The notes under the pieces were generated by a model that saw nothing but the letters and a program-made list of their open reading frames with translations, was not told the origin of the DNA and made no database searches. Below, piece after piece: positions 1 to 35,288 of a stretch of DNA of 35,288 bases; positions within the stretch are counted from its first letter, which is position 1, and the number at the start of each line of letters is the position of its first letter. Source of the DNA: Oscillospiraceae bacterium (lineage in GTDB: Bacteria > Bacillota > Clostridia > Oscillospirales > Oscillospiraceae); NCBI GenBank assembly GCA_017429325.1, contig JAFRPC010000024.1, positions 1 to 35,288 on the forward strand, given 5' to 3'. Made by a program: the position numbers and the translations under genes.

Positions 1-372
1 AGAGGCGCTCATTGAGCGCCCGCCGTCCCCCGCCCGGACGAGGCAACAGGCAACAGGCAACAGGCAACAGGCAACAGGGGACGGGGGACGCGGATTACCA
101 CGGCCCTCCGGGCCCGCTGTAGGGGCGCTCATTGAGCGCCCGCCGTCCCCCGCCCGGACGAGGCAACAGGCAACAGGCAACAGGCAACAGGCAACAGGCA
201 ACAGGGGACGGGGGAAGCGGATTACCACGGCCCTCCGTCTCCGCTGTAGGGGCGCTCATTGAGCGCCCGCCGTCCCCCGCCCGGACGAGGCAACAGGCAA
301 CAGGCAACAGGCAACAGGGGACGGGGGAAGCGGATTGCCACGGCCCTCCGTCCCGCCGTCCCAGCCCTACGG
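1..372. repeat. Triplicated composite repeat (hairpin plus CAACAGG heptamer array)
   Basis: Three head-to-tail copies of one composite unit begin near 1, 121 and 248. Each has a hairpin GGCGCTCATTGAGCGCC, a C-rich linker, a CGGACGAGG spacer, a run of CAACAGG heptamers, and a GGATTRCCACGGCCCTCCG end. The heptamer number differs: 5 copies, then 6, then 4. This fully explains unit lengths of 120, 127 and about 113 bp, so the array behaves like a minisatellite. The long apparent reading frames here, on both strands, arise because the heptamer has no stop codon in any frame. I see no gene in this stretch. Confidence 0.93.
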
Positions 373-376
373 AAAA

Positions 377-406
377 TTGACAAATATCGCCCTGTCTGCA
401 TAGACT
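377..406 (+). promoter_or_regulatory. Promoter of the mazF-like gene
   Basis: TTGACA at 377-382 and TAGACT at 401-406 are 18 bp apart, just downstream of the repeat array and about 70 bp upstream of the toxin gene. The -35 is perfect and the -10 matches four of six consensus positions. Confidence 0.55.
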
Positions 407-475
407 GACACAAAGTATATTTTCCCCCGCTCTGTGGAAGAATAGGGAGGAAATCATTACCGGAGTGTGAGTTGT

Positions 476-829
476 ATGGATCCCAACGTCAGACGGGGCG
501 ATATTTATTTTGCGGACCTTAGCCCGGTGGTGGGCAGCGAACAGGGCGGGACCAGGCCCGTGCTCATCATTCAGAACGACACCGGCAACCGCCATTCTCC
601 CACAGTCATCGCCGCGGCCATTACCAGCCAGCTGGGGAAGGCCAGGCTGCCCACCCATATCACCGTGCCCGGTCGGGAGGTGGGGCTGGCAAAGGATTCT
701 GTGGTCCTGCTGGAACAGATCCGGACCCTGGATAAACGCCGTCTGCGGGAGCACATGGGCCGCCTGTCCGACGAACAGATGTCTCAGGTGGATAATGCCA
801 TCGCCGTGTCCTTTGGTTTGGAGCGGTAA
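476..829 (+). CDS. mazF: Type II toxin, MazF/PemK-family endoribonuclease (NdoA-like)
   Basis: A 117-aa protein closely resembling Bacillus NdoA/MazF, a sequence-specific mRNA-cleaving toxin. The family N-terminus is complete: [20 protein letters not shown] followed by [10 protein letters not shown]27 and T50 sit where the B. subtilis catalytic R25 and T48 lie, allowing for a two-residue offset. I chose ATG 476, preceded by GGAG at 462-465; a GTG at 467 in the same frame would add three residues. In Bacillus the antitoxin gene lies just upstream. Here the 450 bp upstream hold only repeats and a promoter, so the toxin looks like an orphan unless the antitoxin lies beyond the window edge. The gene ends directly in a heptamer array. 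Confidence 0.93.
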
Positions 830-830
830 A

Positions 831-899
831 AAACTTCTTACCTCTTACTTCTTACCTTGTCTGTGCAGGAAAAGGCGGACAAGCGATGCTTGTCCCTAC
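831..899. repeat. Heptamer array (TTCTTAC/CTCTTAC) plus hairpin module
   Basis: Directly after the mazF stop come about three heptamers of the TTCTTAC/CTCTTAC family (834-857). A hairpin follows with arms GGACAAGC and GCTTGTCC at 877-895, ending in CCCTAC. It is the inverted relative of the hairpin at 28573-28598. Confidence 0.8.
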
Positions 900-911
900 A
901 GGAATAAAACG

Positions 912-947
912 CACTCCCCCTCGCATAGACTTGTGCGAGGGGGAGTG
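912..947 (+). promoter_or_regulatory. Perfect 14-bp hairpin whose 3' arm contains the next gene's ribosome site
   Basis: CACTCCCCCTCGCA at 912-925 pairs perfectly with TGCGAGGGGGAGTG at 934-947 across an 8-nt loop. The 3' arm holds the GGGGGAG that serves as the ribosome binding site of the gene starting at 955. No T-tract follows. It could be the terminator of mazF or a structure that hides the ribosome site; the sequence alone does not decide. Confidence 0.7.
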
Positions 948-954
948 GATTTCT

Positions 955-1503
955 ATGGATGAACAGATTTATTTTCGGGGAACAGCCCTGGGGCAGTGGA
1001 CCGCGGCGGCGGAGGGGCTCTATTGGCGCTTCTCGGCCCGCTGTGAGGACCCGGAGCCGGGCGTCTGGCGCCTCTGGGCCTGCTTCGGTGAAGGAGACCG
1101 CCCAGCGGACGAAACCGCCTGTAGCGCCGACAATCTGTCGGCAAATTCGGCCCGCCCCGTGGACGGCTCCGTTCCCGAAACCCGCCTGCTGGGGGTCTGT
1201 TTCCCCGGTGCGGGAGGCCTGCGGCTGGAGCGCCGGGTTTCCCGGCAGAGCTGGCCGCTGCTGCCGGAGGCTGTGGTCCTGGGCCGGGAGGCCGAGGGCT
1301 TCCGCCCCTGGCGGGGCCGTCTGGCGGGCTGCGAGCTCCCGGACGCTATGCTCCGGGAGAACGGGGACGGCACCCGGACCCTGGCGCTCTTCGCCCCGCC
1401 CGAGGGCCCGGTGCCCCTGGCGGAGCAGGTCAGCCAGATGCGGGAGGCGGAGCTGGACGGACGCCCCTGCCTCCTTCTGGACTGGCCGCCGCAAATTCCG
1501 TAG
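955..1503 (+). CDS. Hypothetical protein, 182 aa, with a small in-frame repeat
   Basis: I do not recognise the family. The protein is soluble, rich in Arg, Pro, Gly and Trp, with no signal peptide or membrane segment, and begins MDEQIYFRGTALGQW. ATG 955 is chosen because GGGGGAG lies 9 nt upstream; a longer frame from 886 would start inside repeat sequence. Codons 55-63 are a cassette hairpin (1121-1142, arms GCCGAC and GTCGGC), nearly identical to the intergenic hairpin at 19529-19550. The stop TAG at 1501-1503 is the head of the next repeat. It converges with exoA. That it is a real gene is inferred from the ribosome site and codon composition. Confidence 0.65.
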   Translation: MDEQIYFRGTALGQWTAAAEGLYWRFSARCEDPEPGVWRLWACFGEGDRPADETACSADNLSANSARPVDGSVPETRLLGVCFPGAGGLRLERRVSRQSWPLLPEAVVLGREAEGFRPWRGRLAGCELPDAMLRENGDGTRTLALFAPPEGPVPLAEQVSQMREAELDGRPCLLLDWPPQIP

Positions 1504-1574
1504 GGGGCGGCCCCTGGACGCCCCGTGCCGACGGTTCAAAACGGGAAACGGGCCGTCCAGGGGCCGACCCCTAC
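1500..1574. repeat. 75-bp palindromic repeat between convergent genes, giving both stop codons
   Basis: The element begins GTAGGGGG and ends CCCCTAC. Its two terminal TAG triplets are the stop codon of the upstream plus-strand gene (1501-1503) and of exoA on the minus strand (1571-1573). A close relative lies at 33427-33502 and half a copy lies inside the plsC gene at 34260. Confidence 0.88.
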
Positions 1575-2326
1575 AGATCAAGCACCAACTCCACCGGGCA
1601 GTGGTCCGAGCCGAAGATCTCCTGGTGGATGTCCGTGGAGACCAGCCTTTCCCGCAGCCGGTCGGAGACGACGAAGTAGTCGATGCGCCAGCCCACGTTC
1701 TTTTCCCGGGCCCGCATCCGGTAGCTCCACCAGGAGTACTGGTCCACGGCGTCCGGGTGCTGGAAGCGCCAGGAATCCGTGAAGCCCGCCGCCAGCAGCT
1801 CCGAGAACTTGCCCCGCTCCTCGTCGGAGAAGCCCGCGTTGCCCCGGTTCTGCTTGGGGTTCTTGAGGTCGATCTCCTGGTGGGCCACGTTCAGGTCGCC
1901 GCAGTAGATCAGGGGCTTCTCCGCGTCCAGCCGCACCATGTAGGTGCGCAGGGCGTCCTCCCAGACCATCCGGAAGTCGAGGCGTTTGAGCCCGTCCTGG
2001 GCGTTGGGGGTGTAGCAGGTCAGCAGGTAAAAATCGGGGTATTCCAGGGTGATGAGCCGCCCCTCGTGGTCCAGCTCCTCCACCCCCAGGCCGTACCGGA
2101 CGGACAGGGGCTCGTGCCGCGTGAAGACCGCCGTGCCGGAATAGCCCTTCTTCTCGGCGGAGTACCAGAATTGGCGATAGCCCGGCAGCTCCAGCTCCAA
2201 CTGGCCCGGCTGCATTTTCGTCTCCTGCAAGGAGAAGAAATCCGCGTCTAAGCTCTGAAAGGCTTCCAAAAAGCCCTTCCCCATACAGGCCCGCAGACCG
2301 TTGACGTTCCAGGAGATGAATTTCAT
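1571..2326 (-). CDS. exoA: Exodeoxyribonuclease III (AP endonuclease, ExoA/XthA)
   Basis: This 251-aa enzyme cleaves DNA 5' to abasic sites in base-excision repair and has 3'-5' exonuclease and 3'-phosphatase activity. All exonuclease III motifs are visible: WNVNGLRA (N7), LQETK with the metal ligand E35, GDLNVAH with D144 and N146, RIDYFVVSDRL, and the terminal GSDHCP with D241 and H242. The length is normal for the family. A GGAGG ribosome site precedes the ATG. It is transcribed alone, divergently from uppP, and its stop codon lies in the terminal inverted repeat of a palindromic element. Confidence 0.96.
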   Translation of the reverse strand: MKFISWNVNGLRACMGKGFLEAFQSLDADFFSLQETKMQPGQLELELPGYRQFWYSAEKKGYSGTAVFTRHEPLSVRYGLGVEELDHEGRLITLEYPDFYLLTCYTPNAQDGLKRLDFRMVWEDALRTYMVRLDAEKPLIYCGDLNVAHQEIDLKNPKQNRGNAGFSDEERGKFSELLAAGFTDSWRFQHPDAVDQYSWWSYRMRAREKNVGWRIDYFVVSDRLRERLVSTDIHQEIFGSDHCPVELVLDL

Positions 2327-2365
2327 AGTAAAAACCTCCGGTTTCAGTGGTTAGTGGTCAGTCAA

Positions 2366-3316: not shown

Positions 3317-3320
3317 CACT

Positions 3321-4841: not shown

Positions 4842-5105
4842 ATGCGAGCGACCATCAACGGCAAGCGGGTGACGGACCGGGAGAGCCTGTTCGCACTGCT
4901 GCAGCAGAAGCTGAATCTCCCCGCGGACTACGGGAAAAACCTGGACGCGGTCTATGACGTGCTGACGGACCCCGGCAAGGACCGCATCATCACCATCAAG
5001 CACGAGGACCTGCTGCGCCAGCGCCTGAACGACTACGCCGACGCCCTGCTGCAAATGCTGGAAGACGCCCAGCGCAGCGGACACGTCAAGGTCATACGGA
5101 AGTAA
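4842..5105 (+). CDS. Barstar-family ribonuclease inhibitor
   Basis: This 87-aa protein binds and blocks the adjacent barnase-like RNase in the cytoplasm, protecting the producer. The DYGKNLDAVYD block matches barstar YYGENLDALWD and keeps the aspartates equivalent to D35 and D39 that plug the barnase active site; W38 is replaced by Tyr. ATG 4842 is chosen because GGGAGG (4829-4834) lies 7 nt upstream. An ATG at 4827 is also in frame but has no site. The gene starts 3 bp after the RNase stop, so the two are translationally linked. Its TAA stop lies in the first degenerate heptamer of the next repeat block. Confidence 0.93.
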   Translation: MRATINGKRVTDRESLFALLQQKLNLPADYGKNLDAVYDVLTDPGKDRIITIKHEDLLRQRLNDYADALLQMLEDAQRSGHVKVIRK

Positions 5106-5490
5106 AAAGGTAAGAAGTAAAAAGTAAGAGGTAGGAAGTGCTGTACTTCTTACCTCTTACCTCTTACTTCTTACTTCGCCCGTGCGGGGAACCGCGGACG
5201 GTTGATGACCGCCCCTACAGGCGGGATAGCCTTCCCCCTGGGGGGAAGGTGGCATCGGGCGTCCCCCGCAAGCCCGATGACGGATGAGGGGGCGCCCGTG
5301 CGGGAGACGGCGGGCGGTCGATGACCGCCCCTACAAGCGGGAACGTCCCGTTTTTGTCATTGCGAGCCAGTGCGCACACTGGCGCGGCAATCCGCATCCC
5401 CCGTCCCCTGTTGCCTGTTGCCCGTTGCCTGTTGCCTTGTCCGTGCGGGAGACGGCGGGCGGCCAATGACCGCCCCTACAGGCGGGTCGG
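5106..5490. repeat. Composite repeat block between barstar and galK
   Basis: From left to right: GTAAGAA-type heptamers (5110-5137) facing their reverse complement (5142-5172) as a long hairpin; hairpins ending GACCGCCCCTAC near 5219, 5334 and 5480; a module beginning AGCCTTCCCCCTGGGGG and ending GGATGAGGGGGCG (about 5227-5293); a GTCATTGCGAG to CGGCAATCCG hairpin (about 5357-5394); and reversed CAACAGG heptamers (about 5404-5438). I see no gene. Apparent ORFs here are repeat read-through. Confidence 0.88.
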
Positions 5491-17573: not shown

Positions 17574-17850
17574 AGGCAACAGGCAACGGGCAACAGGCAA
17601 CAGACCCGCCTGTAGGGACGGCTCTCAGCCGTCCGCGGTTCCCCGCCTGTAGCGGCGCACAGTGTGCGCCACGGAACCCGCCCGTAGGGGCGGTCATTGC
17701 GTCGCCCCCGTCCCCCGCCGTAGGGGCGCTCATTGAGCGCCCGCCGTTCCCCGCCCGGACGAGGCAACAGGCAACAGGCAACAGGCAACGGGCAACAGGC
17801 AACAGACCCGCCTGTAGGGACGGCTCTCAGCCGTCCGCGGTTCCCCGCCA
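17574..17850. repeat. Composite repeat block between MATE and DUF1846 genes
   Basis: CAACAGG-type heptamers and the GGACGGCTCTCAGCCGTCC hairpin occur twice (about 17576-17640 and 17763-17842) as a near-exact direct duplication. Between them lie a GCGGCGCACAGTGTGCGCC hairpin (about 17649), an imperfect GGCGGTCATTGCGTCGCC hairpin and a GGCGCTCATTGAGCGCC hairpin (about 17724). No gene is seen. Confidence 0.9.
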
Positions 17851-17955: not shown

Positions 17956-19443
17956 ATGCGGAAGTTTATCGGTTTTGACAATCAGATGTATCTGGAGACC
18001 CAGTCCGCCCGCATTCGCGAGCGCATCGAGCAGTTCGGCGGCAAGCTCTATCTGGAATTCGGCGGCAAGCTCTTCGACGACTTCCACGCTTCCCGGGTCC
18101 TGCCCGGCTTCGCACCGGACAGCAAGATCCGGATGCTCCTGGAGCTGAAGGAATCCGCCGAGATCGTCATCCCCATCAACGCCTCCGCCATCGAGCAGAA
18201 CAAGGTCCGGGGCGACTTAGGCATCACCTATGACGAGGACGTGCTGCGGCTCATCGACGCCTTCCGGGCCGAGGGCCTCTACGTGGGCAGCGTCGTCATC
18301 ACCCAGTATGCGGGTCAGGGCGCGGCTGACGCCTTCCGCCGCCGTCTGGAGCACCTGGGCGTCAAGGTCTACCTCCACTATCCCATCGAGGGCTATCCCC
18401 ACAACATCGCCCGCATCGTCTCCCCCGAGGGCTACGGGCGCAACGACTACATCGAGACCAGCCACCCCCTGGTGGTGGTCACGGCCCCCGGTCCCGGCTC
18501 CGGCAAGATGGCCACCTGCCTGAGCCAGCTCTACCACCACTACGAGCTGGGCGAGACGGCGGGCTACGCCAAGTTTGAGACCTTCCCCATCTGGAACCTG
18601 CCGCTGAATCACCCGGTAAACCTGGCCTACGAGGCCGCCACCGCGGACCTCAACGACGTGAATATGATCGACCCCTTCCACCTGGCCGCCTACGGGGAGA
18701 CCACGGTGAACTACAACCGGGACGTGGAGGTCTTCCCGGTCCTCCAGGCCATCTTCGAGAAGATCATGGGCAAGTGCCCCTACAAGTCCCCTACGGACAT
18801 GGGCGTCAACATGGTGGGCAACTGCATCGTGGACGACGACATCGTCTGCGAGGCCTCCCGCCAGGAGATCGTGCGCCGTTACTACGCGGCCCTCTGCGAC
18901 CAGCGCAAGGGCACCGGCAAGGACGACACCGTCTACAAGCTGGAGCTGCTGATGAAGCAGGCCTCCGTGACCCCGGCCATTCGTCCCGTGGTGGCCCGGG
19001 CGACCCAGGCCGAGGAGGAGACCGGCGAGCCCGCCGTCTGCATCCACCTGCCCAACGGCGAGCTGGTCATCGGCGGCATGTCGGAGCTCATGGGCCCCGC
19101 CGCCGCGGCCCTGCTGAACGCGGTGAAGTCCCTGGCCCACATTGAGCACCCCCGCCACCTGGTAGCCCGGGAGGCCATCGAGCCCATCCAGAGCCTCAAG
19201 ACCAAGTACTTAGGGGGCCGGAACCCCCGCCTCCACTCCGACGAGATCCTCATCGCCCTGGCCATCTCCGCCGCCACCGACGAGTTCGCCGCCAAGGCCA
19301 TGAAGAAGCTGACCCGCCTGCGGGACTGCGAGGTCCACTCCACCGTCATCCTCGGCGAGCAGGACGCCGCCACCTACGCCCGCCTCGGAATGCGCGTCAC
19401 CTGCACCCCCAAGTATCAGAGCAAGAATTTGTTCCATAAATAG
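17956..19443 (+). CDS. DUF1846 (UPF0371) family protein
   Basis: A 495-aa protein that I assign to the DUF1846/UPF0371 family, widespread in Firmicutes and of unknown biochemical role. It is cytoplasmic, with no membrane segment. Landmarks are the N-terminal [16 protein letters not shown], a nucleotide-binding-like loop [23 protein letters not shown] (about 176-198) and the conserved [23 protein letters not shown] precedes ATG 17956. The TAG stop is formed where the coding sequence meets a heptamer array. It is monocistronic, with its own promoter and terminator. Confidence 0.88.
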
Positions 19444-19512
19444 GGGCTAGGGGCTAGTTGCTAGGGGCTAGGGGCTAGTTGCTAGGGGCTAGGGGCTAGT
19501 AGCCAGGGGCTA
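19443..19512. repeat. Heptamer array of GGGGCTA and GTTGCTA in a 21-bp pattern
   Basis: Ten consecutive heptamers follow the DUF1846 stop codon. GGGGCTA (A) and GTTGCTA (B) are ordered A A B A A B A A B' A, where B' is GTAGCCA. The higher-order period is therefore 21 bp. Confidence 0.95.
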
Positions 19513-19528
19513 GGGGACGGGATCGCCT

Positions 19529-19724: not shown

Positions 19725-20795
19725 TCATCGGAAGGGCCGCAGGTCCGCGTCGTAGATCTCCAGGCGGCGGCACAGGACGCGGTCGGGCTTGTACTGGGGC
19801 AGATACGTCTCAATGGCCGTGACCAGCAGCAGGGGATTCAGCGTCGGATTCTGGGCGGCGACGACGGCTTCGACGATTACGACGGACGAATGCGCGGCCT
19901 CGCTGAACGCATTTGCGACAGACGGAAGGCACCCCTCCACCGGCCTTGAGGCCGGTCCCCTGCCGAAGGATGCCAGTTGCTTCAGCGTAGCTGGCGCAAC
20001 GGCGATGAAATCCACAACAGTCCCCCGGACTGTTGTGCCCCTGCAAGCAGGGGAGGTTTCCGCTGCCCGAACAGTGATCTCCCGGATCATGGGGGCGATG
20101 TCCGTTTCCACGGGGCCCTTTTTGCTGTGCTTTTCCACCACCAGCGAAGGCCTGGCGAAGAGGGCCTGGATCGCCTCAACCCTGTCATTGCGAGGCCCGG
20201 AGGGCCGTGGCAATCCGTTTCCCCCGTCCCCTGTTGCCTGTTGCCCGTTGCCTGTTGCCTCGTCGCTGGCGGGGAACGACGGGCGGCCAATGACCGCCCC
20301 TACAAGCGGGTCTGGTGACTGGTGACTGGTGACTGATGCCTGATCCCCGTCCCCTGCTGCCTCGTCGCTGGCGGGGGACGACGGGCGGCCAATGACCGCC
20401 CCTACAAGCGGGTCTGTTGCCTGTTGCCTGTTGCCTGTTGCCTCGTATTCCAACGTCAACCGCGCCCGCAGCCAGGCCAGCTTTCCGGCCTTCTGGCCGC
20501 CTTCGTAGCTTTCAATGGCCCGGATGCCCGCGGGCAGCACCGGGTCCAGGCGGGCGGCGATCTCCGCCGCGGGGACCTGGCAGCCCTCCGCCAGGGCGAA
20601 CTCCGCGAGCTCGCACTGGCTCTCCACCCCCACGGACAGGGGCATCAGGATGGACAGCTCCGGGTGGGGCGTGAAGCCCTGGCTGTGCTTCAGCTCAATT
20701 CCCGCCCGGCGAAAGCTCCGCATCAGCGCCCGCATCAGGTCCAAATGGGAGGACCAGACGGCTGGGCCTTCTTTTACGAATAACAATCTGCTCAT
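19725..20795 (-). CDS. DUF2344/TIGR03936-type radical-SAM-associated protein, expanded by repeats
   Basis: A 356-aa protein; the family is normally about 230 aa. The start is typical of DUF2344: LLFVKEGPAVWSSHLDLMRA, then RRAGIELKHSQGFTPHPELS. The family pairs with the radical SAM protein encoded just upstream. Two stretches are not family sequence. Residues 119-205 are in-frame cassette repeat (TGNRQQATDPLVGAVIGRP, repeated in part), and residues about 247-315 come from DNA with three perfect hairpins. Without them about 200 residues remain, including the C-terminal NPTLNPLLLVTAIETYLPQY. The frame is intact through both, so a full protein may be made, but it may also be non-functional. GGAGG precedes the ATG. 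Confidence 0.85.
   Translation of the reverse strand: MSRLLFVKEGPAVWSSHLDLMRALMRSFRRAGIELKHSQGFTPHPELSILMPLSVGVESQCELAEFALAEGCQVPAAEIAARLDPVLPAGIRAIESYEGGQKAGKLAWLRARLTLEYEATGNRQQATDPLVGAVIGRPSSPASDEAAGDGDQASVTSHQSPDPLVGAVIGRPSFPASDEATGNGQQATGDGGNGLPRPSGPRNDRVEAIQALFARPSLVVEKHSKKGPVETDIAPMIREITVRAAETSPACRGTTVRGTVVDFIAVAPATLKQLASFGRGPASRPVEGCLPSVANAFSEAAHSSVVIVEAVVAAQNPTLNPLLLVTAIETYLPQYKPDRVLCRRLEIYDADLRPFR
19851..20057. repeat. Inserted element with three hairpins inside the DUF2344 gene
   Basis: Perfect dyads lie at 19939-19956 (ACCGGCC and GGCCGGT), 20013-20037 (CACAACAGTC and GACTGTTGTG) and 20038-20053 (CCCCTGCAAGCAGGGG). The block interrupts the family sequence just before the conserved PTLNP. 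Exact borders are uncertain, and I did not find a second copy in the window. Confidence 0.6.
20186..20446. repeat. Cassette repeats inside the DUF2344 coding sequence
   Basis: In order on the plus strand: a GTCATTGCGAG to GGCAATCCG hairpin; reversed CAACAGG heptamers; a GGCGGCCAATGACCGCC hairpin ending CCCCTAC; three TGGTGAC heptamers (about 20314-20334); a second copy of the GGCGGCCAATGACCGCC hairpin; and more reversed CAACAGG heptamers. All are read in frame on the minus strand without a stop. Confidence 0.9.
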
Positions 20796-20822: not shown

Positions 20823-20948
20823 TGTGAAGAGTGAAGAATGCAGAGTGAAGAGTTGAGGTGTCGCTGCGCGACGGATTGAATATCATTTTTCAAATCGGAG
20901 ATTTGAAAAATACCGAAACTATTCACTATTCACTCTACACGATTCACT
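20823..20948. repeat. MITE-like inverted element: GAGTGAA heptamers around an AT-rich palindrome
   Basis: Left heptamers GAGTGAA, GAATGCA, GAGTGAA. The centre is TTTTTCAAATC facing GATTTGAAAAA. The right arm is ATTCACT heptamers, the complement of the left arm. The close relative is at 35005-35141. It separates the radical SAM gene from the DUF2344 gene. Confidence 0.85.
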
Positions 20949-22962: not shown

Positions 22963-23535
22963 TTACCAGTCAAACGCCGATTTCGCAAGGGGGTAGGGCA
23001 GCTTCCAGAGAAAAAATCCTGCCGCCAGCAGGGGCAGCAGGCCCCAGTGCAGGACGCAGGAGGCCCAGACGCAGCTCACGACCATCGCCGCCAGGGTCCC
23101 CCAGTGGAGAAGTTGACATAATATCTCCCCAGACCGGCCCAGCCAATGGGGCAGCAGCAGGGCGCAGAGCCGCCCGCCGTCCAGATGGGCCAGAGGCAGG
23201 AGGTTGGAGCAGCCTAAGGCCAGATTGCAGAGGCCGAAGAGGGGCCAGGCCCGCCAAAAGAGCAGGGCCAGCAGCAGATTCGCCGCCGGACCTGAAGCCA
23301 AGGCCCAGGCCTCCCGAGGCTCTCCCCGCAGCTCCGTCCGCAGGACCGCACCCGTGGCGCGGAGCTCCAGCCCATAGACCGGAATCTCCAGCAGGGCCAG
23401 GGCCGCTATGTGTGCGGCCTCGTGGAGCCCCGCCGCCAGCAGAAAGGGGGGCAGCAGCCCCCAGTCGTCCAGGAACCAGAAGATCGCCAGCACGGCCCAG
23501 AAGCCCCCGTCCGTCGTCACCCGCAGCCCCTTCAC
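22963..23535 (-). CDS. M50 site-2 metalloprotease, SpoIVFB-like
   Basis: A 190-aa polytopic membrane protein with the zinc motif HEAAH (H38, E39, H42) in the first helical region, ASGPAANLLLA, and the third ligand motif LPLAHLDGGR (D119). These are the marks of intramembrane site-2 proteases. The compact size and the position after a small membrane-protein gene resemble the spoIVFA-spoIVFB operon, whose protease releases sigma-K in the mother cell. That role is inferred. GTG 23535 is chosen: GGGAG lies 8 nt upstream, and the GTGA overlaps the upstream stop. A longer frame reaching 23691 only reads repeats. Confidence 0.85.
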   Translation of the reverse strand: MKGLRVTTDGGFWAVLAIFWFLDDWGLLPPFLLAAGLHEAAHIAALALLEIPVYGLELRATGAVLRTELRGEPREAWALASGPAANLLLALLFWRAWPLFGLCNLALGCSNLLPLAHLDGGRLCALLLPHWLGRSGEILCQLLHWGTLAAMVVSCVWASCVLHWGLLPLLAAGFFLWKLPYPLAKSAFDW

Positions 23536-23981
23536 GGCGCGAGCTCCCAACAGACTGCCGCGCCACCGTTCCCCGCCTGCGACGAGGCAACAGGCAACAG
23601 GCAACCGGCAACAGGGGACGGGGGATGCGTAGGGGCGATCATCGACCGCCCGCCGTCCACCGCCTGCGACGAGGCAACAGGCAACAGGCAACCGGCAACA
23701 GGGGACGGGGGATGCGTAGGGGCGCTCACTGAGCGCCCGCCGTCCACCAGCCCGTCCTCCCGGAAGACCGAGATCGCTCCGTCATCTTCCCAGCCGTTCT
23801 CTTCTGCATTCACAAAGGCCACGCAGGCCGCCACGGCCTCCCGGCCCGCCCGGTCCAGCAGCAGACTTCGCAGGGCCTCCGCTCGCCCCGGCGCCAGCAG
23901 CCGCAGCAGCGCCGCCGCCCCAAACACCAGCACCCCGCCCCAGCGCCGGAGCCTTATTCCGTTCCTCTTCGTTTCACGCAT
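23532..23981 (-). CDS. Membrane protein in the SpoIVFA position, C-terminus made of repeats
   Basis: A 149-aa protein. The first ~80 residues look native: a basic start, one membrane segment (about 15-30) and a soluble part ending GAISVFREDG. Then come two nearly identical in-frame cassette copies, each encoding DGGRSxxAPTHPPSPVAG followed by CLLPVASSQA, and a short tail AVCWELAP. The stop overlaps the protease GTG start by 4 bp, so coupling to the next gene survived the insertions. I cannot assign a family; SpoIVFA is suggested by position only, and no peptidase domain is present. ATG 23981 is chosen; GTG 23990 is possible. Confidence 0.65.
   Translation of the reverse strand: MRETKRNGIRLRRWGGVLVFGAAALLRLLAPGRAEALRSLLLDRAGREAVAACVAFVNAEENGWEDDGAISVFREDGLVDGGRSVSAPTHPPSPVAGCLLPVASSQAVDGGRSMIAPTHPPSPVAGCLLPVASSQAGNGGAAVCWELAP
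23580..23752. repeat. Two cassette copies within a coding sequence
   Basis: Two units of about 87 bp (from 23584 and 23671) each contain four CAACAGG-type heptamers, a GGGGACGGGGGATGC linker and a hairpin. The first hairpin is GGCGATCATCGACCGCC, the second GGCGCTCACTGAGCGCC. Otherwise the units are almost identical, so the hairpin changed while the rest did not. Confidence 0.93.
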
Positions 23982-24035
23982 TTCGATCACCGAAACAGCC
24001 TATGTCGGGCCAGCCTGTCCTATGCCTCCGTCTCC

Positions 24036-24312
24036 CGCCTGTAGGGCGGCCAGACCCTGGCCGCCGTCCTCGACGGCCCGCTGTGCCTGCCTGTAGCGCG
24101 GGCAATCTGCCCGCTGTACCCCGCCTGGGAACAGTTGAAAGTTGAAAGTGAAAAGTTGAAAGTTGTGGAGTTTTTCAAATTGCAATTTGAAAAACACATT
24201 CAATTCTCAATTCTTACTTCTCAATTCTCAATTCCGAAAGGAGACGGGGGATGCGGATCCTTCGCTGCGCTCAGGATGACCCGCCCGTAGGGCGGCCAGA
24301 CCCCGCCCGCGG
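24036..24312. repeat. Composite repeat block with a MITE-like element (24133-24235)
   Basis: A GGCGGCCAGACCCTGGCCGCC hairpin (about 24041) and a GCGGGCAATCTGCCCGC hairpin (about 24096) lead into GTTGAAA heptamers. A 24-bp perfect palindrome with half-site TTTTTCAAATTG (24171-24194) follows, then CAATTCT heptamers. After a linker comes a diverged GTAGGGCGGCC hairpin (about 24289). The first 160 bp are nearly identical to 26309-26469. No gene is seen in 23991-24551. Confidence 0.9.
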
Positions 24313-24412: not shown

Positions 24413-24551
24413 AAACTGTAATCATATACGCTGTAATCTATCGCTGTGATCCATACGCTGCGGGCGGACGGACGGGGGACGCCGCTTCCGGGCCTGCCGC
24501 GGGCGATTTGCCGCGGTCCGCGCTGCGGGCCGGGGCGGAGAGGGAGGCGCC

Positions 24552-25284: not shown

Positions 25285-25476
25285 CCTGTAGGGCGGCCAG
25301 ACCCTGGCCGCCGTTCCCCGCACGGACAAGGTAAGAAGTAAGAGGTAAGAAGTAAGAGGTAAGCCGTAGGGGCGCTCACTGAGCGCCCGCGGTCCCCGCA
25401 CGGACAAGGTAAGAAGTAAGAGGTAAGAAGTAAGAGCTAAGCCGTAGGGGCGCTCACTGAGCGCCCGCGGATGCGG
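25285..25476. repeat. Hairpin plus a 78-bp tandem duplication of heptamers and hairpin
   Basis: A GGCGGCCAGACCCTGGCCGCC hairpin is followed by two copies, from 25321 and 25399, of a unit made of CACGGACAAG, four GTAAGAA/GTAAGAG heptamers, GTAAGCC, and GTAGGGG starting a GGCGCTCACTGAGCGCC hairpin. The hairpin head stays in the 7-bp register of the array. Confidence 0.93.
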
Positions 25477-26313: not shown

Positions 26314-26640
26314 GGCGGCCAGACCCTGGCCGCCGTCCTCGACGGCCCGCTGTGCCTGCCTGTAGCGCGGGCAATCTGCCCGCCGTCCCCCGCCTGGGAA
26401 CAGTTGAAAGTTGAAAGTGAAAAGTTGAAAGTTGTGGAGTTTTTCAAATTTCAATTTGAAAAACACATTCATTTTCAACTTTCAACTTTCAATTTTCAAC
26501 TACACAAGGGGACGGGGGAAGCGGATTGCCGCGCCAGTGTGCGCACTGGCTCGCAATGACAAAAACGGGGTGTTTTCGCCTGAAAGGGCACGCCCCCATA
26601 ACTTTCAACTTTCAATTTTCAACTTTCAACTATATTGCAC
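26308..26640. repeat. Composite repeat block between scpA and scpB
   Basis: GGCGGCCAGACCCTGGCCGCC and GCGGGCAATCTGCCCGC hairpins lead to a complete MITE-like element at 26403-26502: GTTGAAA heptamers, a palindrome with half-site near TTTTTCAAATT (26440-26463), and TTTCAAC heptamers that are the true complement of the left arm. Then come a GGATTGCC to CGCAATGACA hairpin (about 26522-26562) and a further one-sided TTTCAAC array (26601-26630). No gene. Confidence 0.9.
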
Positions 26641-28420: not shown

Positions 28421-28715
28421 TAGGGCGGCCAGACCCTGGCCGCCGTACCCCGCCCGGACAAGGTAAGAAGTAAGAGGTAAGAGGTAAGAGGTGAGCCGTA
28501 GGGGCGGTCATTGACCGCCCGCGTTCCCCGCCGTAGGGGCCGGCGCCCTCGACGGCCCGCTGTTCCACGCCTGTAGGGACAAGCATTGCTTGTTCGCCTT
28601 ACCCCGCCCGGGAACAATTGAAAGTGAAAAGTTGAAAGTTGCGGAGTTTTTCAAATTGCAATTTGAAAAACACATTCAATTCTCAATTCTTACTTCTCAA
28701 TTCTCAATTGTCCCT
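28421..28715. repeat. Composite repeat block with a MITE-like element between gerW and dac
   Basis: In order: GGCGGCCAGACCCTGGCCGCC hairpin; GTAAGAA/GTAAGAG heptamers (about 28463-28494); GGCGGTCATTGACCGCC hairpin (about 28502); a GTAGGGGCCGGCGCCC module; a GGACAAGCATTGCTTGTTC hairpin (about 28576); then GTTGAAA heptamers, the perfect 24-bp palindrome with half-site TTTTTCAAATTG (28647-28670), and CAATTCT heptamers to 28711. A short ORF at 28590-28772 is read-through of this block. Confidence 0.9.
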
Positions 28716-28778
28716 TGTCTATTCGGCACGACTGCATATTATCCGTCGCCTTGGGAAAACTACCCCCGGTGATGTGAT

Positions 28779-29804: not shown

Positions 29805-30145
29805 GGGCCGGCGCCCTCGACGGCCCGCCGCACCCCGCCCGTAGGGCGGCCAGACCCTGGCCGCCGTCCTCGCCCGTAGCGCGGGCAATCTGCCCGCTGC
29901 TCCCCGACTGGACCAGCCCGTAGGGGCCGATGCCTACATCGGCCCTACGTTCCCCGCCCGGACAAGGCAAGAAGTAAGAAGGAAGAAGTAAGAGGTAAGC
30001 CGTAGGGGCGCTCATTGAGCGCCTGGTCCGCCTTGGCGGACTATTTGCCCCAGGCAAATCCAGCGCGGTCCCGAAACGGAAACCCGGCTGGATCGTTTGC
30101 TCCGCAAACCGGGCGGCTCATCCGCCTGCGGCGGATAAGAGCCGC
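29801..30145. repeat. String of consecutive different hairpin modules
   Basis: At least seven distinct hairpins follow each other: GTAGGGGCCGGCGCCC (29801); GGCGGCCAGACCCTGGCCGCC (29844); GCGGGCAATCTGCCCGC (29880); GCCGATG/CATCGGC (29920-29948); heptamers of the AAGTAAG type (29966-30000); GGCGCTCATTGAGCGCC (30006); GTCCGCCTTGGCGGAC (30026); ATTTGCCCCAGGCAAAT (30043); and GCGGCTCATCCGCC with its partner to 30144. No gene is seen in 29805-30243. Confidence 0.9.
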
Positions 30146-30965: not shown

Positions 30966-31060
30966 TAAAGTAAGAAGTAAAAAGTAAGAGGTAAGAATGG
31001 AATAACGAGCGACACACCCGTGTTTGTTACTTCTTACTTTTTACTTCTTACCTCTTACAT
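30966..31060. repeat. Inverted GTAAGAA heptamer arrays with a 35-bp centre
   Basis: AAGTAAGAAGTAAAAAGTAA and further units on the left face the complementary TTACTTCTTACTTTTTACTT on the right, about 35 bp apart. The transcript would fold into a long imperfect hairpin. It fills the gap between the pseudouridine synthase and the FAD enzyme. Confidence 0.88.
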
Positions 31061-31068: not shown

Positions 31069-32514
31069 ATGCCTATGAATGAATACGACGTGATCGTGAT
31101 CGGCGGCGGGGCCGCGGGGATGTTTGCCGCCGTCCAGGCGGGCTATGCCGGGGCGAAGGTCCTGCTGCTGGAGCCCAACGAGCGCCTGGGAAAAAAGCTG
31201 TACATCACCGGCAAGGGCCGCTGCAATCTGACCAACGACTGCCCCTGGCAGGAGGTCCTGAAGAACGTCCCCAGGAACCCCCGCTTCCTCTACTCCGCCC
31301 TGTCCGGCTTTACGCCCGCCGACGCCATCACCTTCTTTGAGAGCCACGGCTGCGAGACCAAGACCGAGCGGGGCAACCGGGTCTTTCCGGTGACGGACAA
31401 GTCCGCCTCCGTGGTGGACGCCCTCAAGACCGCCCTGCAATATGCAGGAGTGGAGATCCTTCGCGTTCGGGCAACGGAATTGCTGACCGAAGCTGCCGTA
31501 GGGGACGGGTCTCCCGTCCCGCGCCCCGCGGGAGGCGAAACGCCTCCCCTACGAGAAACGAAACGCCGCATCTCCGGCGTCCGCACGGACCGGGGAAGCT
31601 TCGCGGCGCCCGCCGTGATTTTGGCGACAGGCGGGAAGTCCTACCCCGCTACCGGCTCCACCGGCGACGGCTACCGGCTGGCGAAGGCCTTAGGCCACAG
31701 CATCGTCCCCCCGGTGGGCTCCCTGGTCCCCCTGGTGGAGGACGGCCCCTGGTGCGCCAAAATGCAAGGGCTGGCCCTTCGCAACGTCAGCGTCCGACTG
31801 TTTGAAAGCCTTCCCCCTGGGGGCAGAGCTGTCCAGGGGACAGCGAGTTTTTATTCCCAGTTGCGCAGCTCTGCTGCGGAAATGGGTTCCTCCGCACAGG
31901 TGTCGGCGCAGCCGACGGATGAGGGGACGCCCCGGACGGCAGCCGTTGGAAAGCCCGTGTATGAGGACTTTGGCGAACTTCTCTTCACCCACTTCGGTCT
32001 CTCGGGGCCGGTGATCCTCTCGGCCTCGGCCCACATGGAGCAGGAGAGGGCCTACACGATCTCCATCGACCTGAAGCCCGCCCTGGACGAGGCCACCCTG
32101 GACGCCCGCCTCCTGCGAGACTTCGCCGCCCAGCAGAACCGCAGCTTCGAGAACGCCCTGGCGGGCCTCTATCCCAAGACCATGATCCCCGTGATGGTAG
32201 AGCGCTCCGGCATCCCCGGCGACACCAAGGTCCATTCCGTGACCAAGGAGCAGCGCCGCCGACTTTTGGAGCTGACCAAGCATTTCCCCGTGAAGATCGC
32301 CGGGCTTCGGCCCGTGGAGGAGGCCATCATCACCTCCGGCGGCGTGTCGGTCAAGGAGATCGACCCCAAGACCATGGAGAGCAGGCTGGTCCCCGGCCTC
32401 TACTTCGCCGGAGAGGTCCTCGACGTGGACGCCTATACCGGCGGCTTCAACCTCCAAATCGCCTGGTCCACCGCCTACGCCGCCGCCCAGGCCGCCGCCG
32501 TGCCCCGCCTGTAG
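31069..32514 (+). CDS. HI0933/YhiN-family FAD-dependent oxidoreductase, with two in-frame repeat insertions
   Basis: A 481-aa flavoprotein; family members are usually about 410 aa. The FAD-binding IGGGAAGMFAA motif is at 11-21, LGKKLYITGKGRCNLTN at 40-56, ATGGKSYPATGSTGDGY at 186-202, and the C-terminal GLYFAGEVLDVDAYTGGFNLQ. The reaction is not well established for the family (aminoacetone oxidase activity has been reported for one branch). Two segments are extra: residues 144-163 (a GTAGGGG to CCCCTAC hairpin element) and about 247-290 (a module beginning AGCCTTCCCCCTGGGGG and ending GGATGAGGGG). The stop TAG at 32512 is the head of the next cassette. ATG 31075 is an alternative start. Confidence 0.88.
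   Translation: MPMNEYDVIVIGGGAAGMFAAVQAGYAGAKVLLLEPNERLGKKLYITGKGRCNLTNDCPWQEVLKNVPRNPRFLYSALSGFTPADAITFFESHGCETKTERGNRVFPVTDKSASVVDALKTALQYAGVEILRVRATELLTEAAVGDGSPVPRPAGGETPPLRETKRRISGVRTDRGSFAAPAVILATGGKSYPATGSTGDGYRLAKALGHSIVPPVGSLVPLVEDGPWCAKMQGLALRNVSVRLFESLPPGGRAVQGTASFYSQLRSSAAEMGSSAQVSAQPTDEGTPRTAAVGKPVYEDFGELLFTHFGLSGPVILSASAHMEQERAYTISIDLKPALDEATLDARLLRDFAAQQNRSFENALAGLYPKTMIPVMVERSGIPGDTKVHSVTKEQRRRLLELTKHFPVKIAGLRPVEEAIITSGGVSVKEIDPKTMESRLVPGLYFAGEVLDVDAYTGGFNLQIAWSTAYAAAQAAAVPRL
31497..31557. repeat. Palindromic element within the FAD oxidoreductase gene
   Basis: It begins GTAGGGGACGGG and ends CCTCCCCTACGAG, with internal dyads GACGGGTCTCCCGTC and GGGAGGCGAAACGCCTCCC. It is read as GTA GGG, avoiding the TAG. 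Confidence 0.85.
31805..31940. repeat. AGCCTTCCCCC...GGATGAGGGG module within the FAD oxidoreductase gene
   Basis: The borders match the intergenic module at about 5227-5293: both begin AGCCTTCCCCCTGGGGG and both end GACGGATGAGGGG. The interior is longer here and contains GCGCAGCTCTGCTGCG. It is in frame with the coding sequence. Confidence 0.82.
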
Positions 32515-32655
32515 CGCGGGCAATCTGCCCGCCGTACCCCGCCTGGGAACAGTTGAAAGTTGAAAGTGAAAAGTTGAAAGTTGTGGAGTTTTTCAATTTG
32601 CAAATTGAAAAACACATTTACTTCTTACTTCTTACTTTTCAATTCTCAATTCCTT
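32511..32655. repeat. Hairpin plus MITE-like element with mixed right arm
   Basis: A GCGGGCAATCTGCCCGC hairpin is followed by GTTGAAA heptamers (32552-32586) and a perfect 24-bp palindrome with half-site TTTTTCAATTTG (32589-32612). The right arm begins with ACTTCTT units and ends with CAATTCT units, so two heptamer families meet in one arm. Confidence 0.9.
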
Positions 32656-33085: not shown

Positions 33086-33122
33086 GGTCGGTTCTCCTTT
33101 CCGGTATCGGGCGATAATCGCC

Positions 33123-33173: not shown

Positions 33174-33175
33174 AA

Positions 33176-33395: not shown

Positions 33396-33426
33396 CGCGG
33401 CACCGACGGCGGATGCCTGGAAACCC

Positions 33427-33538
33427 GTAGGGGGCGGCGCCCTCGACGCCCCGTGCCATCGTGACGAAACGGAAAACGGGCCGTCCAGGGGCCGGCCCCT
33501 ACGACGGAAACCGTGGCGCACACTGTGCGCCGCTACAA
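33427..33538. repeat. 75-bp palindromic element plus GCGCACACTGTGCGC hairpin before cmk
   Basis: 33427-33502 is the second copy of the element at 1500-1574, again bounded by GTAGGGGG and CCCCTAC. It is followed by GTGGCGCACACTGTGCGCCGCTAC-type hairpin sequence (about 33512-33535), the inverse of the copy at about 17649. Confidence 0.88.
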
Positions 33539-33558
33539 TCATACAGGAGCGTGATCGT

Positions 33559-34245
33559 ATGAACGAACCGAAGTACATCTCCGTCGCCATCGACGGGCCC
33601 GCCGGGGCGGGGAAGAGCACCATCGCCAAGCGGGTTGCAAAGGACCTGGGCTACCTCTACGTGGACACCGGGGCCATCTACCGCACCGTGGGCTATCACA
33701 TGAGCCTCATGGGCATCGGGCCGAAGGACAAGGACGGCATCGAGCGCTGCATCGACGACGTGAACATTGCCATTGAGTACCGGGACGACGGCCTGCAGCA
33801 CATGATCCTCAACGGCCAGGACGTGACGGACCTGATCCGCAGCCCGGAGATGTCCATGATGGCCTCCGGCGTCTCGGCCCAGCCCTGCGTCCGGGCCTAT
33901 CTGCTGGACATGCAGCGGGAGCTGGCCCGGACCCACAACGTGGTCATGGACGGTCGGGACATCGGGACCGTGGTGCTGCCCGACGCCCAGGTGAAGGTCT
34001 ATCTCACGGCCTCCGCCGAGGTCCGGGCGGACCGCCGCTGGCGGGAGCTGACAGCCAAGGGCGAGCTGGTCCGCTATGAGGACGTCTACACCGACGTGGT
34101 CAAGCGGGACGAGCAGGATATGAACCGTGCCATTGCGCCTCTCAAGTGCGCCGACGACGCCGAGGTCCTGGACTGCTCCTATCTGAGCATCGAGCAGGTG
34201 GTGGCCGAGATGAAGGCCATCATCCGAAAGAAGGCGGGCGTATGA
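33559..34245 (+). CDS. cmk: Cytidylate kinase
   Basis: This 228-aa enzyme transfers phosphate from ATP to CMP or dCMP, needed for nucleotide recycling. The P-loop GPAGAGKS is at 13-20, DTGAIYRTVGYHM follows at about 36-48, and the signature DGRDIGTVVLPDAQVKVYLTA is present, as is the lid RADRRWRE. AGGAG lies about 10 nt before the ATG. The gene overlaps the plsC-like gene by 4 bp (ATGA). The usual clostridial order is cmk, plsC, ispH. Confidence 0.97.
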   Translation: MNEPKYISVAIDGPAGAGKSTIAKRVAKDLGYLYVDTGAIYRTVGYHMSLMGIGPKDKDGIERCIDDVNIAIEYRDDGLQHMILNGQDVTDLIRSPEMSMMASGVSAQPCVRAYLLDMQRELARTHNVVMDGRDIGTVVLPDAQVKVYLTASAEVRADRRWRELTAKGELVRYEDVYTDVVKRDEQDMNRAIAPLKCADDAEVLDCSYLSIEQVVAEMKAIIRKKAGV

Positions 34246-35003
34246 GCGGGGAGAAAACCGTAGGGGGCGGCGCCCTCGACGCCCCGCAGAGCGCCGCCGT
34301 TGAGGCAACAGGCAACAGGCAACCGGCAACAGGGGACGGGGGAAACGGATTGCCACGGCCCTCCGGGCCTCGCAATGACAGGGGCAGGGCGAAATCGGAG
34401 CCGGGACGTGGTTTTGCCACGCGGTTCTTTTATCCGATTATCTACGGGATCCTGCATGTGGCGCTGCGGCTCTATCACTGGCCCAGCTTCCGGGGGCGGG
34501 AGAACCTGCCGGAGGGGCCCTGCGTGATCTGCGGCAACCACTCCGGCTTCGCGGACCCGCTCTGGATCTTCCAGCTATTGGGGTGGAAGATTTTGCCCTG
34601 GACCATGGCGAAGAAGTCCGTCATGGAGACCCCCGTCTTAGGGCCCTTCCTGCGGACCTTCCGGGCCTTCCCGGTGGACCGGGACAACCCGGACATGGCG
34701 GCCATCAAGAAGTCCCTGGCGGTGCTGAAGCTGGGGGAGAAGCTGCTGATCTTCCCCGAGGGGACCCGGGTCAAGAACGGCAAGAAGTCCGAGCCCAAAT
34801 CCGGCGCGGTGCTGCTGGCCCAGCGGGCCGGAGTGCCCCTGGTGCCGGTCTACGTCACCCACGGGCGGAAGCCCTTCCAGCGCATCAAAATCGTCATGGG
34901 CGAGGCCTATGCCCCCGCGTTTCCCACACGCCGCCCGTCCAATGAGGAACTGGAGCAGGCGACGGCGGAGCTGATGGCGAAGATCTATGCGCTGGGAAAG
35001 TAA
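34242..35003 (+). CDS. plsC: 1-acylglycerol-3-phosphate acyltransferase (PlsC family) with a repeat-derived N-terminus
   Basis: A 253-aa membrane-associated enzyme that makes phosphatidic acid by acylating lysophosphatidic acid. The acyltransferase motifs are intact: NHSGFAD with H100 and D105, FPVDRD at about 143-148, and FPEGTR at 171-176. The native protein seems to begin near residue 57 (GFATRFFYPIIYGILHVAL). Residues 7-50 are a translated cassette: a GTAGGGGG half-element, CAACAGG-type heptamers and a GGATTGCC to CGCAATGACA hairpin. ATG 34242 overlaps the cmk stop; no better internal start is obvious. The extension would put about 50 soluble residues before the membrane helix. Confidence 0.9.
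   Translation: MSGEKTVGGGALDAPQSAAVEATGNRQPATGDGGNGLPRPSGPRNDRGRAKSEPGRGFATRFFYPIIYGILHVALRLYHWPSFRGRENLPEGPCVICGNHSGFADPLWIFQLLGWKILPWTMAKKSVMETPVLGPFLRTFRAFPVDRDNPDMAAIKKSLAVLKLGEKLLIFPEGTRVKNGKKSEPKSGAVLLAQRAGVPLVPVYVTHGRKPFQRIKIVMGEAYAPAFPTRRPSNEELEQATAELMAKIYALGK
34259..34382. repeat. Cassette repeats in the 5' part of plsC
   Basis: Order: GTAGGGGGCGGCGCCC half-element (34260), CAACAGG-type heptamers (about 34304-34331), GGGGACGGGGGAAAC linker, and a hairpin from GGATTGCC to CGCAATGACA (about 34348-34380). The whole stretch is open in the plsC frame. Confidence 0.9.
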
Positions 35004-35004
35004 A

Positions 35005-35141
35005 AAAGTGAAGAGTGAAGAGTGAAGAGTTATGGAATTCTGCAATTTGAAAATTGCAGAATGAAAAAAGAATTACTTTTTCAAATTGAAAATTTGAAAA
35101 ACACCGAAACTATTCACTCTTCACTCTGCATTCTTCACGAA
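35005..35141. repeat. MITE-like inverted element: GTGAAGA heptamers around AT-rich palindromes
   Basis: Three GTGAAGA heptamers follow the plsC stop. Two AT-rich dyads come next: TTCTGCAATTTGAAAATTGC with AGAA (about 35037-35062), and TTTTTCAAATTGAAAATTTG with AAAAA. CGAAACTATTCACTC and further complementary heptamers close the element. It is related to 20823-20948. Confidence 0.88.
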
Positions 35142-35147
35142 ACTAAG

Positions 35148-35257
35148 AGTCGCCCGTAGGGGCCGATGCCTACATCGGCCCTACCTACCGATTTTTGCCT
35201 GCAAGCGAGGGCGGATGTGGGCATCCGCCCCTACGACGAAGGGGGCTACTGAATAGA
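35148..35257. repeat. 110-bp double-hairpin element, perfect inverted copy of 22825-22934
   Basis: Identical in every base to the reverse complement of 22825-22934. The remaining 31 bp to the window end hold no feature I can name. Confidence 0.95.
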
Positions 35258-35288
35258 CAATATGAAGTGACTCCCGACTTGCAAAACG

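What the first reader, a model, noticed from the sequence alone, without database searches (positions are those of the whole stretch)
1..35288. All tandem arrays share a 7-bp unit although their sequences are unrelated
At least seven heptamer families occur: CAACAGG, GTAAGAA/GTAAGAG, GTTGAAA, GTGAAGA/GAGTGAA, GGGGCTA/GTTGCTA, TGGTGAC and CAATTCT. Examples are at 46-80, 5110-5172, 19443-19512, 20314-20334, 25327-25362, 26403-26437 and 35009-35030. Chance slippage would not fix one unit length across unrelated sequences. The hairpin head GTAGGGG often continues in the same 7-bp register, for example at 25363. The analogy I know is the heptanucleotide STRR repeats of heterocystous cyanobacteria; I know of no account in Firmicutes. 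A dedicated copying mechanism with a 7-nt step is one explanation.
Basis: partly seen in the sequence, partly recalled or inferred. Interest (0 to 1): 0.88.

Follow-up and report, generated by a model that had tools for sequence, protein, structure and literature searches.

The report
Seven-letter DNA repeats that change words
A group of uncultured gut-type bacteria carries many short DNA repeats with a seven-letter unit; comparing related species suggests that the spelling of these repeats is rewritten over time while the seven-letter step and the place in the genome are kept.

Summary
Confirmed: 35 of 40 window arrays with at least 2.9 copies have period 7; four of the other five are multiples of 3 inside predicted genes. 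The peak recurs in own and most related samples. 'Unrelated' is wrong: the genus's 46 words are linked by single substitutions beyond chance, mix in register within arrays, and differ at orthologous places. In DUF2344, six species hold exactly four heptamers beside a similar palindrome, with different words. At the 3' end of baiN, arrays read AGTAATA, AGTGACA or AGTAAGA. Period therefore looks inherited while words turn over. Arrays sit beside REP-like GTAG hairpins or form inverted arms around palindromes (44 converging, 2 diverging pairs); some lie in frame inside genes. Best explanation: a slippage-prone satellite carried with palindromic repeats and homogenised in register by template switching or gene conversion (inferred). 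No dedicated 7-nt copying enzyme is indicated; reverse transcriptase and Y1 transposase do not track abundance. Heptamer excess in bacteria is already published; the lineage, in-gene insertion and in-register word replacement were not seen in the listings searched. New variant of a known kind.

The parts
4..356 (+). three tandem copies of a 127-bp composite (hairpin + GGCAACA array + GGGGACGGGGG); arrays 41-78, 161-205, 288-318 with 5.4, 6.4, 4.4 units
   Evidence: TRF; sequence
5100..5177 (.). inverted pair of AAGTAAR-type arrays folding as one long hairpin, starting at a gene stop codon
   Evidence: z -7.1
5407..5437 (-). GGCAACA array between two REP-like palindromes
17574..17805 (+). two GGCAACA arrays (17574-17603, 17762-17805) with GTAG hairpins between them
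19441..19516 (+). GGGGCTA/GTTGCTA array with 21-bp higher-order unit
20230..20443 (-). GGCAACA and TGGTGAC-type arrays plus GTAG hairpins in frame inside the DUF2344 gene 19725-20795 (-)
20824..20948 (.). inverted pair GTGAAGA / GTGAATA around a double palindrome core
23585..23702 (+). two GGCAACA arrays in two tandem 87-bp composites, inside and at the edge of an M50-type peptidase frame (-)
24133..24234 (.). inverted-arm element: GTTGAAA left arm, palindrome TTTTTCAAATTGCAATTTGAAAAA, right arm CAATTCT/TACTTCT
25331..25441 (+). two GTAAGAA/GTAAGAG arrays (14-bp higher-order unit), each running in register into GTAGGGG
26402..26501 (.). similar inverted-arm element, right arm AACTTTC
   Evidence: z -9.6
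26600..26631 (-). GTTGAAA array
28461..28492 (+). GGTAAGA array running in register into GTAGGGG
28612..28724 (.). similar inverted-arm element with shorter left arm, right arm CAATTCT/TACTTCT
29964..29999 (+). GTAAGAA array before a GTAG hairpin
30968..31058 (.). inverted pair of GTAAGAA-type arrays between rsuA and baiN
   Evidence: z -6.4
32551..32646 (.). similar inverted-arm element, right arm TACTTCT then CAATTCT
34303..34333 (+). GGCAACA array near the start of the acyltransferase (plsC-type) frame
35007..35138 (.). inverted pair GTGAAGA / GTGAAGA-GTGAATA around palindromes, just after the acyltransferase stop codon

Best explanation
These arrays are one evolving population of heptamer satellites carried with REP-like and MITE-like palindromic repeats. 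SHOWN: period 7 is kept across words; words are linked by single substitutions and mix in register inside arrays; at orthologous sites the words differ while unit number (DUF2344) or array start (baiN) is kept; converging arrays fold into long hairpins and usually share words on both arms; copies of one composite differ by whole units. INFERRED: arrays spread with palindromic repeats; slippage changes unit number; template switching or short gene conversion between arrays, and between the two arms of one hairpin, copies a current word over an older one. Because donor and recipient can only align in the 7-bp register, the period is locked in by descent while the sequence drifts. Why the founding unit was 7 is not explained here; a general 7-nt slippage bias proposed in the literature may have supplied it.
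For: Word network: 58 one-step pairs against null mean 25.2 (max 39); 43 of 46 words with a one-step neighbour against 28.6 (max 37). DUF2344 site: four heptamers, one GGGGACG-type unit, then a CGGATT...AATGAC-type palindrome in six species, with words GGCAACA (own, G019), GGSATCA-like (G006) or four mixed units (G003, G007, G012); the word matches the genome's more frequent word where that is clear (GGCAACA-pattern and GGSATC-pattern hits: own 82 and 3, G019 106 and 48, G006 2 and 87). baiN 3' end: AGTAATA in G006 and G002 and AGTGACA in G016 begin at the same codon, AGTAAGA mixed with AGTAATA or AGGAATA in G005 and G012 within one codon of it. Four window copies of one element have similar left arms and cores but three right-arm word patterns. 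Adjacent arrays within 150 bp: 44 converging, 2 diverging, 62 same direction; 34 of 44 converging pairs share a 6-mer, within-genome shuffles mean 19.3, max 29 of 500. Hairpin z-scores -3.9 to -9.6 in the 5 regions folded. Arrays before a GGGGACG-type unit: clean fraction 0.56, 0.58, 0.44, 0.33, 0.50 in array-rich own, G016, G019, G006, G004; 0 of 7 qualifying windows in seven array-poor genomes (small, see against).
Against: No strain pairs were available (other genus pairs are at most 89.5% identical in the compared blocks), so no conversion event was caught. Independent insertion of standard composites at one tolerant site could mimic in-place rewriting; baiN site 2 holds unrelated repeat types in different species. 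In G003, G007 and G012 the units stay in register although nearly every unit differs, which homogenisation alone would not produce. One search is weak: about 5% of random windows pass its threshold, two of the seven poor-genome windows overlap and two look like chance, and array-rich G005 gave none. G004, rich in GGCAACA by pattern count (75), shows only 4 of 16 period-7 arrays in its sample. One period-8 array (L119 near 2300) lies outside the scheme. Origin of 7 is left open.
Confidence: 0.58

Rival explanations
1. General polymerase slippage bias: the replication machinery slips preferentially by 7 nt, so arrays of any sequence arise with period 7 everywhere.
For: Heptamers are reported as over-represented among bacterial simple repeats, with polymerase contact length offered as the cause (PMC4692102 passages). 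In 79 loci of mostly other Clostridia genera period 7 is the commonest period that is not a multiple of 3 (15 arrays against 12 for all other such periods). One genome of another family (G216) is rich in 7-mers in the three stretches chosen for them (15 of 15 arrays), less so in nine spaced stretches (3 of 11).
Against: Words are not arbitrary but a connected, mostly purine-rich network; arrays lie mostly between genes, often in converging pairs; same-genus genomes range from 0 to 106 GGCAACA-pattern hits.
Confidence: 0.22
2. Separate mobile elements: each palindromic element family simply carries its own heptamer arms, and the different words at one site reflect repeated independent insertions.
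For: baiN site 2 and the rsuA loop carry different repeat types in different species; own GGCAACA composites recur with nearly constant array-to-hairpin spacing (partial listing).
Against: At DUF2344 eight genomes share the same right-hand junction after an AATGAC-type palindrome end, and six share the unit number with different words; that needs the same breakpoint and length several times over.
Confidence: 0.14
3. A dedicated enzyme copies 7 nt per step, for example a reverse transcriptase with an RNA template or a REP-associated transposase.
For: Fixed unit length; GTAG heads run in register with GTA-type arrays in 11 of 18 cases (not all independent).
Against: Y1_Tnp in 12 of 23 and RVT_1 in 13 of 23 genus genomes; both are found in G001 and G009, which have no GGCAACA-pattern hit, and RVT_1 was not found in G005 and G018, which have arrays; drafts are incomplete, so absences are soft. 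Some 46 words would need many templates.
Confidence: 0.06

Closest known systems
Short tandemly repeated heptanucleotides (STRR) of filamentous cyanobacteria
   Same: 7-bp unit, several words in one genome (three heptanucleotides in Calothrix PCC 7601 as cited in PMC4692102, passages; the rest recalled)
   Different: Host is a Clostridia lineage; arrays are coupled to GTAG hairpins and inverted-arm palindromes and occur in frame inside genes; word differences at orthologous sites shown here
G-rich heptamers GGGAATC of Xanthomonas and GGGGA(C/T)T of Nostoc (PMC4692102, passages)
   Same: heptamers between genes, length and sequence vary between close relatives, inverted repeats noted; GGGAATC itself occurs in G005 and G019
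   Different: the study follows one word family per organism; here some 46 linked words; no quadruplex requirement here
TAACTGA direct repeats of marine Beggiatoaceae (PMC4679880, abstract)
   Same: intergenic heptamer repeats recurring in distant phyla
   Different: single word there, mostly just before start codons; here many words, with the purine strand just after same-strand stops in 103 cases against 30 on the other strand, of 301 intergenic arrays
REP / BIME elements with GTAG foot (PMC2817692, passages)
   Same: GTAG followed by a palindrome, dispersed, composites
   Different: heptamer arrays as linkers and arms; RAYT partner not demonstrated in own genome
Rickettsia palindromic elements in coding genes
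   Same: palindromic repeats inserted in frame in genes (recalled; only a search listing seen)
   Different: other sequence, here accompanied by heptamer arrays
Quasipalindrome-associated template switching (abstract openings of PMC7202029, PMC8604942, PMC8794818)
   Same: would homogenise two arms of an imperfect hairpin
   Different: here proposed also between dispersed arrays; not demonstrated

Membership tests
cyanobacterial STRR | tandem heptanucleotide arrays, several copies | tested here: met
cyanobacterial STRR | host is a filamentous (heterocystous) cyanobacterium | tested here: not met
   Clostridia: genus member G020 is 100% identical over 19.4 kb to RUG104, titled uncultured Clostridiales bacterium
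REP/BIME | GTAG at the foot of a short palindrome, dispersed | tested here: met
   hairpins visible; GTAGGGGCG 74 times in 624 kb of own sequence against 22 for the reversed control
REP/BIME | cognate RAYT (Y1) transposase in the genome | tested here: inconclusive
   own genome: one Y1_Tnp match below cut-off; 11 of 23 genus genomes over cut-off; own draft is 72.8% complete
MITE | terminal inverted repeats | tested here: met
   44 converging array pairs, 34 sharing a 6-mer between arms
MITE | target-site duplication and parental transposon | not tested
   not measured
tandem simple sequence repeat | length changes in whole units | tested here: met
   5.4, 6.4, 4.4 units in three copies of one composite within the window; between strains not tested
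in-frame palindromic element in coding genes | insert length a multiple of 3, frame open | tested here: met
   rsuA inserts of 396, 183, 201, 201, 93, 75 and 126 nt over a 63-nt empty site in seven genomes; DUF2344 segments of 9 of 9 measured filled genes have the same length modulo 3 as the two empty ones measured with that anchor

The most novel reading that the evidence does not exclude
Dispersed heptamer arrays are rewritten in place, genome-wide, to the genome's current word by a template-directed process that moves in 7-nt register, possibly with a specific protein tied to the GTAG hairpins. That would be a concerted-evolution system for bacterial satellite DNA.
Probability: 0.2. Interest if true: 0.85.

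Novelty: new variant of a known kind. Interest (0 to 1): 0.58.

Why it matters
Why bacteria favour 7-bp repeats has been open, with polymerase contact size offered as a guess (as cited in PMC4692102). Here one orthologous array can be followed through six species: place, unit number and step are kept while the letters change. That turns the question into two testable ones, how a word spreads between arrays and why the founding unit was 7. It also shows heptamer arrays and palindromes inside conserved genes in frame, so they are predicted to be translated into peptide repeats (such as GNRQQAT).

Tried and rejected
Dedicated reverse transcriptase or RAYT: neither family tracks array abundance in 23 genus genomes. 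Spread of the double-palindrome core beyond the genus: none of the 290 other class genomes searched (that draw held no other member of the genus, while a similar core is seen in G016). Shared words across families: GTGAAKA arrays in 8 of 291 class genomes including own, reversed control in 2 of 291; suggestive, but one word only. Words in other genera lying near the genus list: 2 of 15 exact, 10 one step away, 3 two steps; with 46 words, one step covers a large share of all heptamers, so I draw nothing from it. A function as transcription terminators: hairpins fold well and arrays often sit after stops, but no U-run test was made. A stop-codon cassette (a 7-bp step puts a stop in all three frames): many words hold TAA, TAG or TGA (by eye), but GGCAACA, the commonest, holds none, so rejected as a general reason.

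Failed or faulty steps: one search translated minus-strand loci on the wrong strand and was redone; one search used a wrong anchor and was redone; one search stopped with an error after printing its main table, so the list of non-GTA arrays is incomplete. In one search the automatic segment for G016 fell at the wrong place, and G005 and G010 were not matched; five of the empty genes matched a slightly shifted anchor. G008 (not given; its hit ends in unrelated sequence) is also left out of the frame count. The 309 rows include overlapping rows (297 arrays after merging). Paper search found nothing; the listings (several of them capped) show no account of heptamer arrays in Clostridia; that holds for that library and those terms only.
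Full report
1. OBSERVATION. The window is contig C32 of an unnamed draft genome of 2.03 Mb in 68 contigs, 72.8% complete. Related loci identify it as a Clostridia/Oscillospiraceae-type lineage: genus member G020 is 100% identical over 19.4 kb to RUG104, recorded as an uncultured Clostridiales bacterium. All quoted repeats are present. Self-match runs of at least 12 peak at lags 7, 14 and 21 with 16, 18 and 11 runs; other lags have 0 to 3, and Markov simulations average at most 0.05. 35 of 40 window arrays with at least 2.9 copies have period 7.

2. GENOME AND RELATIVES. Arrays of at least 2.9 copies: own unselected stretches 17 of 39 with period 7, 15 multiples of 3, 7 others; window plus 20 own stretches (13 chosen for GGCAACA) 106 of 134; G016 55 of 83; G019 44 of 67; G006 33 of 45; G005 11 of 18; G004 4 of 16, with 10 multiples of 3; sixteen blocks of other genus members 27 of 39; 79 loci of mostly other genera 15 of 80. 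GGCAACAGGCAACAGG occurs in 16 of 39 genomes searched, own included: 16 of 23 in the genus, 0 of 16 outside it; genus counts run from 0 to 106.

3. WORDS ARE RELATED. 309 period-7 rows (297 arrays after merging overlaps) give 46 words, both strands and all rotations merged. 58 word pairs are one substitution apart; shuffling the letters of each word gives mean 25.2, maximum 39 in 200 trials. 43 of 46 words have a one-step neighbour (null 28.6, maximum 37); 34 words form one component. Words mix inside arrays, for example AGGCATC with AGGGATC, and AGTGAAG, AGTGAAT, AGGTAAG, AAGTAAA side by side in G047 of a distant family. Species amplify different words: GGCAACA-pattern and GGSATC-pattern hits are 82 and 3 in own, 2 and 87 in G006, 3 and 110 in G018, 91 and 81 in G016.

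4. DIFFERENT WORDS AT ONE PLACE. (a) DUF2344 gene (window 19725-20795, minus; PF10105 at 7.7e-39). A relative was found in 22 of 23 genus genomes; 20 were displayed. The insert after LTLxY[DE] is absent in G001, G009, G010, G014, G015, G017, G018 and G020; present in own, G019, G005, G006, G007, G022, G021, G012 and G003; G002 and G016 hold short or other inserts, and the G008 hit is cut. In six genomes the array is GA + four heptamers + one GGGGACG-type unit + a CGGATT...AATGAC-type palindrome. The four units are: own GGCAACA GGCAACG GGCAACA GGCAACA; G019 GGCAACA four times; G006 GGGATCA GGTATCA GGCATCA GGCATCA; G003 GGCGGCA GACAGCA GACGGCA GGCAGCA; G007 GGGATCA GGGAGCA AGGATCG GGGATCA; G012 GGAATCA GAGGCCA GGGATCC GGGATCT. 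In G006 and G007 further palindromes follow before the gene resumes. Inside the palindrome the own copy also differs from the others. (b) 3' end of baiN: AGTAATA (G006, G002) and AGTGACA (G016) arrays begin at the same codon, AGTAAGA-type arrays of G005 and G012 within one codon of it. (c) In the window, four copies of one element have similar left arm and core, while right arms read CAATTCT/TACTTCT (24171, 28647), AACTTTC (26440) or TACTTCT then CAATTCT (32589). In array-rich genomes a third to a half or more of the arrays before a GGGGACG-type unit are clean; in seven array-poor genomes 0 of 7 windows are. That sample is small, about 5% of random windows pass its threshold, and G005 gave no qualifying window.

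5. ANATOMY. Two settings recur. In the first, an array stands beside a GTAG-headed hairpin, often linking it to a second palindrome. In the second, two arrays point at a central palindrome or short loop: converging pairs 44, diverging 2, same direction 62; 34 of 44 converging pairs share a 6-mer (within-genome shuffles mean 19.3, maximum 29). Five such regions, chosen by me, fold with z from -3.9 to -9.6. Even where arm words differ (24131-24240) the arms pair along their length with short interruptions. By my own gene caller, 146 of 173 own arrays lie between genes although only 14% of the sequence is non-coding; in five genomes the purine strand lies just after a same-strand stop in 103 cases against 30 for the other strand, of 301 intergenic arrays.

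6. ARRAYS INSIDE GENES. In rsuA the loop is 63 nt in own and eight other genomes; it carries 75 to 396 extra nt in G004, G005, G006, G007, G008, G012 and G019, every insert a multiple of 3; clear heptamer arrays are in the inserts of G005, G006, G007 and G019. baiN has two such sites with different repeat types in different species. The open DUF2344 frame of the window reads ...EYEATGNRQQATDPLVG..., and rsuA of G019 reads ...VRQATGNRQQATGD.... So the sequences are tolerated, and presumably filtered, by the reading frame.

7. MECHANISM. Shown: fixed step, linked words, different words at orthologous places, hairpin arms, whole-unit length differences (5.4, 6.4, 4.4 units in three copies of one composite). 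Inferred: slippage for unit number; template switching within hairpins and between arrays for word spread. Template switching that homogenises inverted-repeat arms is described in PMC8604942, and related template switching in PMC8794818 and PMC7202029 (only the abstract openings in the listing were seen). A register-locked population of arrays explains the one fact that slippage alone does not, the same period under changing words, without a new enzyme. It does not explain why the first unit was 7. The published suggestion is polymerase contact length (PMC4692102, passages, citing a 2007 study I did not see).

8. RIVALS. A general 7-nt slippage bias may add to this, since 7 is also the leading non-triplet period in the loci of other genera. 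Independent insertion of ready-made composites cannot be excluded at DUF2344. A 7-nt copying enzyme has no candidate: Y1_Tnp is in 12 of 23 and RVT_1 in 13 of 23 genus genomes, without matching abundance; the genomes are drafts.

9. KNOWN OR NEW. Known: heptamer excess in bacteria, cyanobacterial, Xanthomonas and Beggiatoaceae heptamers (PMC4692102 passages, PMC4679880 abstract), REPs with GTAG (PMC2817692 passages). Not seen in the listings of searches: heptamer arrays in Clostridia tied to REP-like palindromes, in-frame gene insertions of them, or word replacement at orthologous arrays. These searches cover one open-access library, and several listings were capped.

Noticed in passing
window 19908-20060: A second, different repeat lies in frame in the same DUF2344 gene; similar stretches occur elsewhere in the own genome (C46, C63, C12, C42, C61).
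   Followed up: partly
window 22963-23990: An M50-type peptidase region holds two 87-bp composites and its open frames lie in two registers, so the gene may be interrupted; only the 22963-23691 frame has a Pfam match.
   Followed up: no
L119 near 2300: One inverted-arm element has an arm of period 8 (TATGAAAA) instead of 7 (by eye).
   Followed up: no
L285-L287 against L276-L284 (G216): In a 5.5-Mb single-contig genome of another family, three stretches chosen for GTGAATA hold 15 arrays, all period 7, while nine spaced stretches hold 11 arrays, 3 of period 7; arrays may be clustered on that chromosome.
   Followed up: partly
L161 12294-12752: rsuA of G006 carries several tandem copies of a GTAGGGGGCGGCG palindrome within an in-frame insert.
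   Followed up: no
baiN site 2 (window 31789-31968 and relatives): One site of baiN, read in 16 genus genomes, has received at least four different repeat types in different species, an insertion hotspot.
   Followed up: partly
window 24416-24460: The only intergenic non-heptamer array of at least 2.9 copies in the window has period 13.
   Followed up: no
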